Source: Ruminiclostridium sp.
GTDB taxonomy: Bacteria; Bacillota; Clostridia; DSM-8532
Direction of reading: 5' to 3'
Assembly (NCBI GenBank): GCA_003535195.1
Contig: DOHN01000135.1
Coordinates: 5,046 to 11,889, forward strand
DNA length: 6,844 nt
The notes beneath the pieces are model-generated. The model was not told where the DNA came from and ran no database searches. It worked only from the letters and a program-made list of their open reading frames with translations. Positions 279 through 6,783 of this stretch are shown one piece after another. Position numbers and translations under genes: made by a program. Position 1 is the stretch's first letter. Every line of letters begins with the position of its first letter.

Positions 279-285
279 AATGTTA

Positions 286-2289
286 ATGAAAATCAATAGT
301 TTATCAAGCAAGATGTCGTTATTAATGACGGGATTTGTTGCGATTTTTATCGTTGCAGCTTTTATCATTATCTCTACAACTGTTGGAAGTGTTATAAGCC
401 AGAATGTTGAGAATGAATTAAAAAACAAGTCGTCTGTACTAAGCAATGATATAGAAAGTTTGAAGCAAAAGGCTCTAAACGCAACAGAATGGTTTGAGGG
501 TTCAGCCAGGCTGGTAAGCGCCGTCGAAAGCCAGGATCGTCAAGGAGCCCTGGATCTTGGCAAAGTGGCACTTAAATCCTTCGGAGTTGATTATTTTGTT
601 ATTACCGACAGGGAAGGAAAAGTATTTATCCGAGCCCATGAGCCAGACAAATATGGCGACAGTATTGCCAATCAGGTAAATATTCAAAAGGCTTTACAGG
701 GGGAAAAGTCGGTAGGAATTGAAGAAGGAGCGATGGTAAAATATTCAATCCGTGCTGGCACTCCGCTGAAAGATAAAGACGGCCATATTATCGGGGCCGT
801 GTCCTTGGGATATGTCCTTTCCAACAACGAGTATGTGGATAAACAAAAAAAGATTTTCAATTGTGATGTGACAATATTTTCAGGTGATGAGAGAATAGCT
901 ACAACGATTGAAGATAAAAATGGGGATCGTATAATCGGGTCGAAAATGGAAAACCAGAGCATTATTGACACGGTATTAAAGAATGGAAAACCCTATTATG
1001 GAGAAGCAGCGATAAATGGTTTTAAGTATTTTACAGTTTATACGCCGGTTATTGATGTTACCGGAAAAAACACCGGTATGCTCTTTGTTGGTCAAAAACT
1101 TGATATCGTTGCGGAACTGACTAAAAAACTGATTACCAATCAGGGTGCTGTCATGGCTGTTTTAGGTATTCTTGCCGGCTTATGCGTTATAATGATGTTC
1201 CGGCTTATGGTTATCAGAAAGGTTCGGGCCATTACCGGAATGCTGAAGGAGATTGCTGAAGGAAATGGGGATTTGACCAAGAGAGTGGCTGTTTCATCTA
1301 AAGACGAGATCGGAGAGATGACAAGCTATTTCAACTTATTTATTGGGAGTACTCATGAAATGGTAAAGAAAATTATTTCGGAAACGGAAAAGGTCAATGC
1401 GGCAATCATAGTTTCCCATAAAAATATAACTGCTCTCACTGGTGATCTGGAGGACACCGCAGCTACAGTGCAACAATTGTCGGCGGGAATGGAAGAAACC
1501 GCCACTTCTACGGAGCAGATTACTGTAACTTCCAATGAGATTGAGGACGCAGTAGAAACTGTTGCGGTGAAAGCTCAGGAAGGAGCCCTATCTGCCGATG
1601 AAATCAGCAAAAAAGCAGTTTCCCTAAAGGACAGTTCGTTTATGCTTCAGGCGGAGGCTGGCAAGACCCTATTATCTATCAAAAAAACCATGGATGAAGC
1701 CTTGGAAAAAACTAAAGAAGTAAATAGAATAAAGACTCTTGCTGATGCAATTATGCAAATATCCTCGCAGACAAACCTGTTAGCTTTGAATGCGGCTATT
1801 GAATCAGCAAGAGCTGGTGAAGCCGGGAGAGGATTTTCCGTCGTTGCCGAAGAAATACGAAAACTGGCGGAAAGCTCTAAAAATTCAGTGAATGAGATTC
1901 AGGGCATACTAAGTGTTATCTTTGAAGCAGTTGATAACCTCGCCGATAGTGCCAGACAGACACTGGAATATATCGAAACTAAAGTGGTTGAGAGTTATAA
2001 GGAATCCGCCCTTGTTGGTGACAACTACAACGAAGATGCTCACTATATTAATGATTGGGCAATGGAATTAAGTGCTACTTCAGAGGAGCTTCTCGCCTCA
2101 ATAAAAACAGTGTCGGAAGGGATTACTGAAATATCAAAAGCTACAGAGGCCGGTTCCGAGGGAACGAGTCATATTGCCGATAAAGTTTTAAAAATAAAGA
2201 ATCGCGCCAATGAAATCAAAATGGAGACAGATGGTGTTAAAGAAAGTGCGGATAATTTGCAAGAATTAGTTATGAAATTTAAAGTATAA
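286..2289 (+). CDS. Methyl-accepting chemotaxis protein with double-Cache sensor and HAMP
   Basis: A 667-residue transmembrane chemoreceptor. It should bind a small ligand outside the membrane and control CheA through CheW at the cytoplasmic tip. Visible parts in order: membrane helix about 11-33; extracytoplasmic sensor about 35-285; second membrane helix about 288-310; HAMP about 307-360 ([16 protein letters not shown]); then a long coiled-coil signalling domain. The proximal sensor half (about 193-270) has the Cache_3-like pattern [14 protein letters not shown] ... [14 protein letters not shown] ... GMLFVGQ. The hairpin tip is canonical ([23 protein letters not shown], about 495-517). Both coiled-coil arms are about 150 residues, compatible with the long receptor class common in Firmicutes. 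Likely methylation regions are [11 protein letters not shown] (401-411) and the [10 protein letters not shown] arm (596-605). There is no C-terminal CheR-tethering pentapeptide. The ligand is unknown. The start was chosen by the ribosome binding site at 271-278. Confidence 0.95.
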
Positions 2290-2366: not shown

Positions 2367-5300
2367 ATGGGACATGTACCTTTGTTATTTTCATTGCTGT
2401 TTTTTACTTCATCTGCTGTCTACTTGTTTTTCGGGATATATATTATTAATATGAACCTAAAAGCAAGTTTGAACAAATTGTTCCTGATAGTTTGTTGTTC
2501 TTTATGCCTATGGTCCTTTGGGTTCTCTATAGCCAACTCTGCTGCAAATATGGAAACATGTTTGTTCTGGAGGAGGATTTCCGCTATTGGTTGGGCATCC
2601 ATATACAGCTTACTGTTACATTTTTTATTATTACTTACCAGTGAAAAGTGTACCCTGAAGCGATGGCGTTTTTGTTTGCTATTGTATCTTCCTGCCGTTA
2701 TCAATATGTATGTCTTTTCTATTTCCAAGGAGATGACAGCAATTCAGTATAATCTGGTAAAGATGGATTATGGCTGGGTTAATATAGCGGTGAATAATGG
2801 ATGGGATTTGTTTTTTTACATTTATTATGCTGGATATGTGCTTGCCTGTCTGGCAATTGTTTGGCGTTGGAAACGAAAATCATCCGATGAAAGTGCCCGT
2901 AAACAGGCCAACCTCATCTTTATTTCGATTCTCGCCGCTTTACTGCTTGGAAGCTTGACGGATGTGGTTTTGAGTTCAAGTTTGACAAGCCCTTTGCCGC
3001 AAATGGCACCCATATTTACTCTCATACCAATTGCGGCTATACACTATTCTATAAAACGTTATAGCTTGATGCGAGAAGTAATTGAAAATAAAGATGAGTT
3101 AATACTAAATAACGAAACCCGTGCAAAATTGCATTACTATTTGTCCATTGCATTTTTAACTGGGGGGTTGCTAACTTTATTATCCCGTTTTTTACCACAT
3201 TTAATAAATGGTGAGGAAAATTTTAAATCCACCCTATATGCCAGCGGATTATTGTTTATATTTGGATTTGCAATTCTGATATTTAGATTGATAAAAGCCG
3301 AGAATATAAAGAACGTGCTGATAATGATAATAACCCTTTCCAGTATCCCAATAATTACCCTTAGATTTGTAGAATATGCCAGTATAACTGTCTGGGCCTT
3401 CCCAATTATTTTAACGATTGTTTCCCTTGTATTCAATACACGAACTCCATTAATTTTGGTAACAGCCATGGCTATTATTACCCAAATAATAGTTTGGATA
3501 TATGCACCTGCAGGAGCAATACAGATGGATAAATTTGATTATATCCTAAGAATCGGCATATTTGTTATTGCGTTCTGGATAGGATCGGTTGTAAACAATA
3601 TCTATCTAAAGAGACTAAAGGAAAATATCTATCAAATTGATTTCCAGAAGATGATTTCGGAAATTTCTTTTGACTTTGTGAGTGTCAATCAGGCAAGCAT
3701 TGATGAAAAGATCAATAATATGCTGAATAAAATGGGCCGGTTTTTTTATGTGGATCGAACTTATGTATTTTTGATTAATCACCAGGACAGCACTATGGCC
3801 TACACCCATGAGTGGTGCAATGAAGGAATAGAGCCTGAAGTAGGAACCATTCAAGACATACCCCTCGACGTGTTCCCCTGGTGGATGGAACAGTTGAAGA
3901 GTAATAAACTAGTTTACATAGAGGATGTGAGCAAACTGCCGGATGAGGCCGGCGCGGAGAAAGCCCAGCTAACCCGGCAAGACATTAAATCCATAGTAGC
4001 AATTCCCATCGAAGGAAACGGAGAGCTCCTGGGCTATATTGGATTCGATTCCGTGGCATCATTCAGGAAATGGTCCAACTATCATATTAAGCTGCTTAAA
4101 ATCCTGGCTAATCTTCTGGCTGATGGATTAATAAAGACTAAGGCTGAAAAAGAGATCGAATTAATGGCCTATTACGACCACTTGACGGGTCTTCCTAACC
4201 GTACCCTGTTTTGGGACAGGCTCAATCAGGCCATTCACCTAGCCAAGCGGACCGAGAGATTTGTCGGTGTCATGTTCATGGACCTGGATGGCTTTAAGAT
4301 GGTGAATGACACCATGGGGCACAGCGGCGGGGATGAATTTCTCATTATGATCAACAACATCCCCGATGCTAAAGATATCGTCAAGATCGCCGATAGCATC
4401 ATGAAATTGTTTGAAAAACCATTTAATTTAAATGAACAGGAGTTCTTTATTACCGGCAGTGCAGGCGTTGCCGTTTATCCGGTGGATGGTGAGGATGCGG
4501 GAACATTAATTAAAAATGCTGATATCGCAATGTATAGGGCAAAGTCCAAGGGTAAAAGCCAATATGCATTATGCACTGAGGATATGAAGGAGGAAGTGAA
4601 GAAAAATATGATACTGTCCAACAGCCTGTATCGAGCCCAGGAGCGAAATGAGCTGGTTGTTTATTATCAGCCGCAGGTCAGGCTGCATACGGGTCAGGTA
4701 ATAGGGATAGAGGCCTTATTGCGCTGGAAACATCCGGAAATGGGCATGATATTCCCCAGCGTTTTTATACCGCTGGCGGAAAAGAACGGGCTAATCAACA
4801 GTATCGGCGAGTGGGTACTCAGAACGGCGAGCAGCCAAAATAAAAAGTGGCAGGATATGGGGCTGCCACATCTGCGCATGGCGGTTAATCTATCGATCAG
4901 CCAATTTAATAATCCCCGTATTGTTGATAATGTGGATAGTATTCTTAAGGAAACGGGCTTGAGCCCCGAATATCTTGAATTGGAAATTACAGAAAGCATC
5001 GCCATTAAAGAAGCAAACTATACGATAGGCATTTTAAACAAACTGAAAAAACTGGGTGTATCTATTTCTATTGACGATTTTGGGACAGAATACTCGTCCC
5101 TCAGCCGATTGAAAATACTTCCCATCGACCGGATTAAGATTGATATGCAGTTTGTACAGGGTATCGAAGGCAACGAAAAGGACCAGGCTATCACCAAGAT
5201 TATAATTAACTTAGCTAAGAGTCTGGGGCTTGAGGTTCTGGCCGAAGGCGTAGAAACAGCGCCGCAGTTGGAATTTCTCAATCAGAAAATGTGCGACGAT

Positions 5301-5387
5301 GTGCAAGGATACTACTATTATAAGCCCATGCCCGCCGAAGAAATTGAGAAATTATTGAAGTCCAATGCAAGCAAAAAAGCTGAATAA
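2367..5387 (+). CDS. Membrane-bound 7TM-(6TM)-GAF-GGDEF(degenerate)-EAL protein, predicted c-di-GMP phosphodiesterase
   Basis: A 1006-residue polytopic sensor predicted to hydrolyse cyclic di-GMP to pGpG at the inner face of the membrane. Residues 1-235 resemble the N-terminal 7TM module of histidine kinases (about seven hydrophobic helices, ending HYSIKRYSLM). Residues 256-412 hold about six more hydrophobic helices. A GAF domain covers about 425-590. GGDEF spans about 600-735: DHLTGLPNR, metal-site DLD (639-641), FKMVND, GGDEF (654-658), SAGVAVYP and NADIAMYRAKSKGK are present, but about 26 residues before GGDEF are missing, so cyclase activity is unlikely. EAL spans about 750-998 with every key residue visible: E782 (EALLRW), N841 (NLS), E873 (ELEITES), D903 and D904 (DDFG), K924 (IKID), E960 (LAEGVET) and Q980 (VQGYYYYKP). 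Loop 6 reads DDFGTEYSSL, with Glu instead of the usual Gly. GC is much lower in the membrane half than in the enzymatic half. No specific gene name can be assigned. Confidence 0.92.
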   Translation: MGHVPLLFSLLFFTSSAVYLFFGIYIINMNLKASLNKLFLIVCCSLCLWSFGFSIANSAANMETCLFWRRISAIGWASIYSLLLHFLLLLTSEKCTLKRWRFCLLLYLPAVINMYVFSISKEMTAIQYNLVKMDYGWVNIAVNNGWDLFFYIYYAGYVLACLAIVWRWKRKSSDESARKQANLIFISILAALLLGSLTDVVLSSSLTSPLPQMAPIFTLIPIAAIHYSIKRYSLMREVIENKDELILNNETRAKLHYYLSIAFLTGGLLTLLSRFLPHLINGEENFKSTLYASGLLFIFGFAILIFRLIKAENIKNVLIMIITLSSIPIITLRFVEYASITVWAFPIILTIVSLVFNTRTPLILVTAMAIITQIIVWIYAPAGAIQMDKFDYILRIGIFVIAFWIGSVVNNIYLKRLKENIYQIDFQKMISEISFDFVSVNQASIDEKINNMLNKMGRFFYVDRTYVFLINHQDSTMAYTHEWCNEGIEPEVGTIQDIPLDVFPWWMEQLKSNKLVYIEDVSKLPDEAGAEKAQLTRQDIKSIVAIPIEGNGELLGYIGFDSVASFRKWSNYHIKLLKILANLLADGLIKTKAEKEIELMAYYDHLTGLPNRTLFWDRLNQAIHLAKRTERFVGVMFMDLDGFKMVNDTMGHSGGDEFLIMINNIPDAKDIVKIADSIMKLFEKPFNLNEQEFFITGSAGVAVYPVDGEDAGTLIKNADIAMYRAKSKGKSQYALCTEDMKEEVKKNMILSNSLYRAQERNELVVYYQPQVRLHTGQVIGIEALLRWKHPEMGMIFPSVFIPLAEKNGLINSIGEWVLRTASSQNKKWQDMGLPHLRMAVNLSISQFNNPRIVDNVDSILKETGLSPEYLELEITESIAIKEANYTIGILNKLKKLGVSISIDDFGTEYSSLSRLKILPIDRIKIDMQFVQGIEGNEKDQAITKIIINLAKSLGLEVLAEGVETAPQLEFLNQKMCDDVQGYYYYKPMPAEEIEKLLKSNASKKAE
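4164..4571 (+). other. Degenerate GGDEF domain with internal in-frame deletion
   Basis: This segment encodes residues 600-735 of the GGDEF-EAL protein. In typical GGDEF domains about 27 residues separate the GH of NDT.GH..GDE from the GGDEF motif; here a single Ser does (GH at 651-652, GGDEF at 654-658, bases 4326-4340). The missing part would carry the helix after GH..GDE, the RxxD inhibitory site region and the strand leading to the Arg-x-GGDEF turn. The flanks before and after align normally and the reading frame is kept. The domain probably serves as a linker, a GTP-sensing remnant, or nothing. Confidence 0.8.
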
Positions 5388-5541
5388 TAGAAGCCATCAC
5401 CTTTGTGCAAGGTATAAAGTAATTTGCGAAGCGGGCGAAAGCTTTGTCCCTTCCAATCTTTACCCCAATATGCAGGATGTTGCCGAAAATATAATCGCAG
5501 CGGTGAAAAAGGTTAACAGTCAATGCTCCCCCGAAGTATGA
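5365..5541 (+). CDS. Possible small ORF (58 aa) or gene remnant between the two EAL genes
   Basis: An ATG at 5365 opens a 58-codon frame that overlaps the last 23 bp of the GGDEF-EAL gene in the +1 frame and ends at TGA 5539-5541. The second half looks protein-like (EAGESFVPSNLYP, then an amphipathic stretch AENIIAAVKKV), whereas the first part reads through the end of the upstream gene. The ribosome binding site is poor (GAAG about 4 nt upstream), so expression would rely on translational coupling. I do not recognise a family. It could be a small coupled protein, the 3' remnant of a lost gene, or chance. The frame is the same as that of the downstream EAL-HDOD gene, interrupted only by the TGA. 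Confidence 0.25.
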   Translation: MQAKKLNNRSHHLCARYKVICEAGESFVPSNLYPNMQDVAENIIAAVKKVNSQCSPEV

Positions 5542-5589: not shown

Positions 5590-6783
5590 ATGGATGCGTT
5601 TATTGCAAGACAGCCTATTTTTGATAAAAGCATGAAAATTTACGGGTATGAACTATTATACAGGCAGAGTGGGGATAACTTTTTCACCGGGATTGATGAC
5701 GATCAGGCCACAGCCGAATTGATTTACAATGCTTTTCTTGTCATGGGGCTTCAAGACTTGACGGATGGAGCCAACGCCTTTATTAATTTCTCCAAAGAGT
5801 TGATTGACAGTGATGTCCCTTTTTTACTGCCGAAGCAGAACATCATTGTGGAGGTTCTCGAACGGGAGAAAGTAACCTCTGCTACAGTAGAGGCCTGCAA
5901 AAGGATTAAAGCGGTGGGATATAGGCTGGCTCTTGATGACTTTGTTTTTGATCAAAACAATCTGCCTTTAATTGACATGGCCGATATTATCAAAATAGAA
6001 TTTCCGGCAGTAAACCGCCATGAACAATACAATCTTATTAAAAGATATGGAACGAAAATAAAGTTTTTAGCGGAAAAAATTGAAACCAGAGAAGAGTATC
6101 AGCAGGCAGCCGGAATGGGATATGAGCTGTTTCAAGGATATTTTTTCAGTAAACCGGCTATTGTCAGATCCAAGGAGGTCGTAACGCTTAACGCCAACCT
6201 TTTTAGTATTCTGGAAGAGCTGAGCTCTCCCGAGCCAAGCTATACTGTTATTGCCGATATTTTTGAAAGAGACCTGGGACTTTCGTATAAGCTGTTGAAG
6301 CTTGCCAATTCAGTTTATATAGGGGCAAGGAATAGGATTAAATCAATCCCCCACGCCTTATCCTATATCGGTATTAATGAAATGTACCAGTGGATTTCAC
6401 TGATGATGCTGAAGGATATGCAGAATGTGGAAAATGCTGAACTGGTTAAACAATCGCTGATCAGAGGCAAGCTTATGGAACTCCTCTCCCCTGAGCTACG
6501 CTTAGAAGGAGAGAGTTCGGAGTTCTATTTTACGGGGATATTTTCTTCCATTGATGTTTTATTAAATAGCCCAATGCAGCAGATTTTAAAAGGCCTTCCC
6601 TTGCCTATCAATGTAAAAAATGCCCTCTTAGGTATAGACAATGAGCAGCGAAAGCTGTTAAAATTTGTTATAAACTGGGAAAAAGCTCACTGGGAAAAAG
6701 CTGAGGACCAATATCCAATGACCAGTAAGTTTATGGAGTTATATATGGAAGCATTGAAATGGGCAAAAAAACTGAATTATTGA
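5590..6783 (+). CDS. EAL-HDOD signalling protein (YuxH/CdgJ type)
   Basis: A cytoplasmic protein of 397 residues with no membrane segments. The N-terminus MDAFIARQPIFD followed by YGYELLYR is the hallmark of the EAL-HDOD family. The EAL-like domain covers about 1-195 and the HDOD domain about 200-397 (LGLSYKLLKLANS, SIPHALSYIGINEMYQW). Positions matching the catalytic residues of true EAL enzymes are largely kept: E21, N66, E88, D116 and D117, K135, E162 and Q182. However, loop 6 is replaced (DDFVFDQNN instead of DDFGTGYSS) and the EAL triad reads ELL, so enzymatic activity is doubtful. Characterised family members such as Vibrio CdgJ affect motility and are generally treated as non-catalytic regulators. 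HDOD domains are regulatory helical folds related to HD phosphohydrolases that lack the metal-binding HD residues. Placement behind an MCP and an EAL phosphodiesterase fits a role in motility or c-di-GMP signalling. It has its own promoter-like sequence and a strong ribosome binding site. Confidence 0.93.
   Translation: MDAFIARQPIFDKSMKIYGYELLYRQSGDNFFTGIDDDQATAELIYNAFLVMGLQDLTDGANAFINFSKELIDSDVPFLLPKQNIIVEVLEREKVTSATVEACKRIKAVGYRLALDDFVFDQNNLPLIDMADIIKIEFPAVNRHEQYNLIKRYGTKIKFLAEKIETREEYQQAAGMGYELFQGYFFSKPAIVRSKEVVTLNANLFSILEELSSPEPSYTVIADIFERDLGLSYKLLKLANSVYIGARNRIKSIPHALSYIGINEMYQWISLMMLKDMQNVENAELVKQSLIRGKLMELLSPELRLEGESSEFYFTGIFSSIDVLLNSPMQQILKGLPLPINVKNALLGIDNEQRKLLKFVINWEKAHWEKAEDQYPMTSKFMELYMEALKWAKKLNY
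6674..6703 (+). repeat. Tandem 15-bp direct repeat inside the EAL-HDOD gene
   Basis: Two adjacent copies of ACTGGGAAAAAGCT plus one variable base (6674-6688 and 6689-6703) are identical at 14 of 15 positions. In frame they encode WEKAH-WEKAE (residues 363-372) near the C-terminus, and the period of 15 keeps the frame. This may be a slippage duplication, though family members often have a W/YExxxWE-like stretch here, so chance similarity is possible. Confidence 0.6.

What the first reader, a model, noticed from the sequence alone, without database searches (positions are those of the whole stretch)
4164..4571. GGDEF domain with about 26 residues cleanly missing; the two GDE motifs appear fused into one
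Seen: ND-TMGH-S-GGDEF-LIM, with only one residue between GH and GGDEF, while both flanks match ordinary GGDEF domains and the frame is open. Known: diguanylate cyclases have GHxxGDE, then a helix, then RxGGDEF, about 27 residues from GH to GGDEF. The junction GHSGGDEFL satisfies both GHxxGDE and GGDEF, as expected from a 78-bp deletion by recombination between the two similar GGN-GAY-GAR codon strings. Inference: the cyclase and its RxxD inhibitory site are lost, turning a bifunctional protein into a phosphodiesterase only. A recent strain-specific deletion, a fixed family trait and an assembly collapse are all possible.
Basis: partly seen in the sequence, partly recalled or inferred. Interest (0 to 1): 0.7.

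Follow-up and report, generated by a model that had tools for sequence, protein, structure and literature searches.

The report
Signalling enzyme with half-erased cyclase domain
A bacterial membrane sensor from a family with both a c-di-GMP-making and a c-di-GMP-breaking domain has lost exactly 26 amino acids from the making domain, which likely left it able only to break the signal; the other 211 related proteins compared keep that stretch.

Summary
The gene at 2367-5387 encodes a 1006-residue 7TM-GAF-GGDEF-EAL protein whose GGDEF domain lacks exactly 26 residues (78 bp), junction at 4326-4334. Of 212 homologous proteins retrieved, only this one has the two motifs fused; 208 have the normal spacing of 29 and the other three keep the stretch. 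The lost segment holds the long helix and second strand in the models, the RxxD inhibitory site and a conserved Asp; the EAL domain keeps nine of nine catalytic positions scored. Cyclase activity is therefore very likely gone and phosphodiesterase activity likely kept, but nothing was assayed, and whether the EAL still obeys GTP is open. The lesion lies on one terminal branch: lineage-specific, age unknown. A syntenic locus in Ruminiclostridium cellobioparum carries the opposite lesion: GGDEF intact, EAL mostly lost. A new variant of a known kind, moderately interesting.

The parts
2367..5387 (+). CDS, 1006 aa: HisKA_7TM - GAF - GGDEF (26 residues missing) - EAL
   Evidence: starts as orthologue L030 does (MGHxPLLFSLLF)
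2403..3071 (+). HisKA_7TM sensor region (residues 13-235)
   Evidence: E 2.6e-14
3705..4121 (+). GAF domain (residues 447-585)
4167..4601 (+). GGDEF domain lacking the helix/strand segment (residues 601-745)
4326..4334 (+). deletion junction: GGCGGGGAT, the single remaining copy of the Gly-Gly-Asp repeat
   Evidence: L030 has GGCGGTGAC and GGCGGGGAT 78 bp apart; exact shared string CGGCGG, 6 bp
4620..5336 (+). EAL domain (residues 752-990), nine of nine catalytic positions scored retained
280..2289 (+). upstream methyl-accepting chemotaxis protein (Cache, HAMP, MCP signal), part of the syntenic locus
5590..6783 (+). downstream EAL-HDOD protein, part of the syntenic locus; 87% aa identity to R. 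cellobioparum

Best explanation
This is a membrane GGDEF-EAL signalling protein from which a 78-bp in-frame deletion, likely made by slippage or recombination between two short Gly-Gly-Asp-coding repeats, has removed the 26 residues between the two GGDEF-domain motifs, so that it is predicted to hydrolyse c-di-GMP but no longer to make it. Shown by sequence: the exact 26-residue loss, its presence in only 1 of 212 homologues, the loss of the RxxD site and of the conserved Asp of the first motif, and retention of the EAL catalytic residues. Predicted by structure model: loss of the long helix and the second strand of the cyclase fold, with a poorly defined junction and a less certain linker helix. 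Inferred: no cyclase activity, no product inhibition, no or weakened GTP control, and an EAL domain driven by the 7TM and GAF sensors alone.
For: Alignment of the 120 listed homologues: only the window has the gap; spacing over 212 proteins. DNA of intact orthologues shows the repeat in register 78 bp apart; longest shared string 6, 6, 3, 9, 6, 6 bp in L030, L029, L035, L036, L033, L034. The control model (L030) has helix 58-84 and strand 90-93, of which the window model keeps helix 58-65 and lacks the strand; junction-block pLDDT 59 against 85, first three blocks 48, 51, 62 against 75, 86, 94. The lost stretch holds an Asp present in 120 of 121 rows, I-site R (107 of 121) and D (115 of 121), and an Arg (119 of 121). 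EAL positions E, N, E, D, D, K, E, E, Q are retained. dN/dS window against L030 is 0.10 in the EAL and 0.16 in the whole gene, so there is no sign of long pseudogene drift. The host also encodes a paralogue (39% over residues 4-663) with a full-length GGDEF match in a 777-aa frame that stops soon after it, so loss of this cyclase need not be harmful (inference). Precedent: in P. [quoted passage not shown]
Against: No activity was measured and reads were not available. The GGDEF remainder shows little sign of relaxed constraint (window-specific changes 10 of 149 sites against 16 for P0002), which fits a recent event but also a domain still in use; the part after the gap has dN/dS 0.20 against L030 (EAL 0.10), but 0.11 against L029. 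One normally invariant Asn near the domain's end is Ser in the window (residue 731; Asn in the 29 others). Hybrid EAL enzymes can need GTP on the GGDEF, so the EAL may not be active. The shared string is only 3 bp in L035, and the window's own ancestral sequence is unknown. The awsX paper also says hot-spot repeats cannot be predicted well.
Confidence: 0.75

Rival explanations
1. The whole protein is failing: the EAL needs a GTP-bound, folded GGDEF to be released, so the deletion silences both activities and the gene is an early pseudogene.
For: GTP binding to the GGDEF activates the EAL in CC3396, RbdA, RmcA and Shewanella PdeB (PMC9061725, passages). Linker and junction confidence drop in the model. 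The syntenic R. cellobioparum gene is also broken, in its EAL.
Against: The frame is open over 1006 codons; nine of nine EAL positions are kept; dN/dS is low. A young pseudogene would look the same.
Confidence: 0.15
2. The shortened GGDEF is still a folded regulatory module that binds GTP or a partner and controls the EAL.
For: In the model the first strand and the strand after GGDEF remain (47-56 and 72-80), and both Asp of FMDLD, NDxxGH, GGDEF and the two C-terminal lysines are still there. An inactive GGDEF that serves as a regulator is known (PMC9061725, passages).
Against: The Asp of the first motif and one helix and strand of the core are gone. AlphaFold is not a test of stability, and its junction score is low (59).
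Confidence: 0.06
3. The gap is an assembly or minority-allele artefact.
For: The genome is an 81.6% complete assembly in 213 contigs; reads were not available.
Against: Repeats of 5-9 bp are too short to collapse (recalled); the frame is intact; the protein's cluster is recorded as 3 member sequences on 5 contigs, the longest 34,232 bases while the window's contig is 30,692, though member lengths cannot be seen; no second copy in the assembly.
Confidence: 0.04

Closest known systems
7TM-GAF-GGDEF-EAL orthologues P0002/L030 (Pelotomaculum MAG, 77%) and L029 (Ca. Syntrophopropionicum ammoniitolerans MAG, 71%)
   Same: same domain order and near-full-length similarity; same EAL residues
   Different: they keep the 26 residues, including the helix, the second strand and the I-site
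Hybrid phosphodiesterases with an inactive GGDEF (CC3396, RbdA, RmcA, PdeB; C. difficile PdcB)
   Same: GGDEF-EAL protein whose predicted output is c-di-GMP hydrolysis
   Different: in the passages read, those are described as inactive or degenerate GGDEF domains, several still binding GTP (PMC9061725, PMC9286219), and no block deletion is mentioned; here a block of the fold is deleted while the GGDEF letters stay perfect
R. cellobioparum locus L035 / P0123
   Same: same neighbours (V4R, MCP, EAL-HDOD); same sensor architecture
   Different: opposite lesion: GGDEF intact, EAL frameshifted and mostly deleted; the GGDEF-EAL gene itself lies on a different branch (60% identity)

Membership tests
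Active diguanylate cyclase (GGDEF) | GG(D/E)EF signature | tested here: met
   GGDEF at residues 654-658
Active diguanylate cyclase (GGDEF) | full GGDEF fold including the helix and strand between the two motifs | tested here: not met
   26 residues missing; absent from the model
Active diguanylate cyclase (GGDEF) | Asp of the first motif (guanine contact in PleD, recalled) | tested here: not met
   gap in the window, Asp in the other 120 of 121 rows
Active diguanylate cyclase (GGDEF) | RxxD inhibitory site (not universal) | tested here: not met
   deleted
Active diguanylate cyclase (GGDEF) | GTP to c-di-GMP conversion | not testable with these tools
   needs a bench assay
EAL phosphodiesterase | EAL domain with catalytic E, N, E, D, D, K, E, E, Q | tested here: met
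   PF00563 E 1.8e-72; nine of nine; fold matches PaMucR EAL with c-di-GMP, TM-score 0.96 by target length, rmsd 1.1
EAL phosphodiesterase | hydrolysis of c-di-GMP | not testable with these tools
   needs a bench assay
[quoted passage not shown]
   predicted weakened or lost; not measured

The most novel reading that the evidence does not exclude
The deletion made a working minimal GGDEF: a cyclase fold stripped of one helix and strand, in which the first strand runs almost straight into the GGDEF strand and serves as an unlocked regulator of the EAL, so that one deletion at a short repeat turns a two-way c-di-GMP switch into a one-way one; the opposite lesion at the syntenic R. cellobioparum locus would make this locus a natural two-way experiment in splitting a bifunctional enzyme.
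Probability: 0.08. Interest if true: 0.65.

Novelty: new variant of a known kind. Interest (0 to 1): 0.36.

Why it matters
GGDEF-EAL hybrids are common, and it is often unclear how they commit to one activity (background knowledge). Here one small deletion removes part of the cyclase core while leaving the signature letters GGDEF perfect, so motif-based annotation would still call it a cyclase (NCBIfam TIGR00254 matches at 93.9 bits, cut-off 37.4; 146.2 in the intact P0002). If the EAL is active, it is a natural test of whether a hybrid EAL needs a folded, GTP-binding GGDEF.

Tried and rejected
Fixed family trait: rejected for the proteins seen, 1 of 212. Recurrent variant in the phylum: the exact GHxGGDEF DNA pattern found no other GGDEF gene in 398 genomes (the one other hit judged by eye); other fusion spacings were not scanned. 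Relaxed constraint after the deletion: not clearly seen (30 of 120 proteins, three coding sequences, synonymous change near saturation). Second full copy in the same assembly: none at DNA level, only a 161-bp stretch of a paralogue at 72%. Stretch 5365-5541 as a conserved gene: no Pfam match and no convincing match in six related loci. RecA as a host marker: no match in this incomplete assembly, so RpoB was used. Close EAL-HDOD neighbour in the genomes of L030, L029, L035, L036: 1 of 4, that of L035; in the family of R. cellobioparum at E 1e-60: 1 of 11, itself. Literature: eight searches (one search found nothing, and several lists were capped) showed no title or abstract start about a GGDEF lacking this segment. 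Only listings were seen, apart from passages of PMC9600634, PMC8370652, PMC9286219 and PMC9061725, and most subscription papers are not held, so absence from print is not shown.

Full report
What is there. The window carries, all on the + strand, the end of a V4R-domain gene (to 228), a chemotaxis receptor (280-2289), a 1006-residue 7TM-GAF-GGDEF-EAL protein (2367-5387) and an EAL-HDOD protein (5590-6783). Pfam matches the GGDEF domain in two pieces and the EAL in full; in the whole-genome search the two GGDEF pieces are profile positions 1-63 and 80-160.

The gap. One search found 376 homologues (scoring only the 7993 best candidates) and listed 120; all 120 were aligned, and only the window protein lacks the segment, exactly 26 residues. 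A second search with the junction region alone, meant to favour other fused domains, listed 120 of 137 hits; of the 212 distinct proteins from both searches, spacing GH-to-GGDEF is 3 in the window alone, 29 in 208, 30 in P0206, 42 in P0166, and P0083 has no recognisable motif but no gap. One search took the longest spacing per protein; one search rechecked the exceptions and is the count given here. An exact DNA pattern for GHxGGDEF hit 2 of 398 genomes: the window and one frame that by eye does not resemble a GGDEF domain.

How it arose. In L030 the two sites read AGC-GGC-GGT-GAC and TTC-GGC-GGG-GAT, 78 bp apart; the window reads AGC-GGC-GGG-GAT. The longest in-register shared string in six intact loci is 6 (L030, CGGCGG), 6 (L029), 3 (L035), 9 (L036), 6 (L033) and 6 bp (L034). 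The repeat in the window's own ancestor is not known. In the tree of 30 proteins P0001 sits on its own short branch (0.096) with weak support for its exact place, so the deletion belongs to that branch. A deletion between 6-bp repeats is a documented route for an in-frame mutation in a c-di-GMP network: awsX in P. fluorescens SBW25; the same passage adds that such hot spots are hard to predict (PMC8370652, passages). P. fluorescens experimental evolution also yields in-frame deletions in cyclase genes, which that paper says fall largely outside the catalytic domain (PMC9600634, passages).

What is lost and kept. Lost: the conserved Asp after GHxG (120 of 121 rows have it), RxxD (R 107, D 115 of 121) and the Arg before GGDEF (119 of 121). 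Kept: both Asp of FMDLD, N of NDxxGH, GGDEF and the two lysines near the domain's end. EAL: nine of nine positions kept; among the 121 rows (120 listed plus P0123) only P0123 deviates. The roles of these residues come from recalled work on PleD and RocR, not from a call. The AlphaFold model of the window fragment (421 aa, mean pLDDT 87.5) against the L030 fragment (447 aa, 92.0) shows the loss of most of helix 58-84 and of strand 90-93; what remains is first strand, short helix, GGDEF strand. Junction block 59 against 85; first three blocks 48, 51, 62 against 75, 86, 94. Both models match GGDEF-EAL structures best (PaMorA 4rnh, PA0575 5m3c with GTP).

Selection. dN/dS window against L030: whole gene 0.16, GGDEF 0.17 (0.12 before the gap, 0.20 after), EAL 0.10; window against L029 the part after the gap gives 0.11 (dS 0.58-1.9, so rough). 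Window-specific residues in GGDEF are 10 (3 + 7) of 149 against 16 (6 + 10) for P0002; one of six outgroups, P0006, is a relative of P0002, which if anything raises the window's count. Three GGDEF residues of the window are seen in none of the 29 others, six of P0002's. There is no clear sign of long decay; this neither proves nor excludes function of the remnant.

Mechanism. Most likely the protein is now a phosphodiesterase steered by its 7TM and GAF sensors, without cyclase output or product inhibition. The open point is GTP control: in CC3396, RbdA, RmcA and PdeB, GTP on an inactive GGDEF activates the EAL (PMC9061725, passages), and C. difficile PdcB lowers c-di-GMP although its GGDEF is degenerate (PMC9286219, passages). 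The deletion could therefore free or lock the EAL; only an assay can tell.

Surroundings. The same gene order occurs in R. cellobioparum (L035). There the GGDEF is intact, but the EAL shifts frame near residue 763 and all but about 50 residues are missing before the EAL-HDOD gene. That record is a draft, so the frameshift itself could be an error; about 700 bp missing is harder to explain so. Flanking genes are 72-93% identical in 200-base steps, the middle (MCP and GGDEF-EAL gene) 42-79%, and P0123 falls in another branch than P0001 in one tree (support values not printed), so the two genes do not look like the same allele and each lesion is its own event. The host's RpoB has Thermoclostridium caenicola as its nearest named species (87%); unnamed hits are nearer, one at 93%, besides three at 100% without a source. 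Thirteen same-genus genomes have no close orthologue of the GGDEF-EAL gene, nor of the EAL-HDOD and topoisomerase genes (weak matches only), so the contig may be a horizontally acquired stretch or mis-binned.

Verdict. Real, lineage-specific, well explained as a small deletion; functional reading likely but unmeasured.

Noticed in passing
L035:6980-9406 and 9529-10722: Syntenic locus in R. cellobioparum with the opposite lesion: GGDEF intact, EAL frameshifted and mostly deleted, EAL-HDOD neighbour 87% identical.
   Followed up: partly
window 280-2289: The chemotaxis receptor's N-terminal sensor half does not match the syntenic receptor in L035 (42-58% nt), while the signalling half does; looks like a sensor exchange.
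   Followed up: no
window 5365-5541: A 58-codon open frame overlapping the end of the EAL gene, no Pfam match; may be a remnant or chance.
   Followed up: partly
contig C191 (window and flanks): Three genes tested have no close orthologue in 13 same-genus genomes; contig possibly acquired or mis-binned.
   Followed up: partly
L001 (contig C106): Paralogue (39% over residues 4-663) with complete GGDEF in a 777-aa frame that stops soon after it: a candidate dedicated cyclase in the same genome.
   Followed up: partly
P0083, P0046, P0055, P0025, P0053, P0087, P0094, P0119, P0005, P0107: 10 of 121 family rows have a GGDEF signature that departs from GG(D/E)E(F/Y) by substitution, so the cyclase motif may erode repeatedly while the EAL residues stay.
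   Followed up: no
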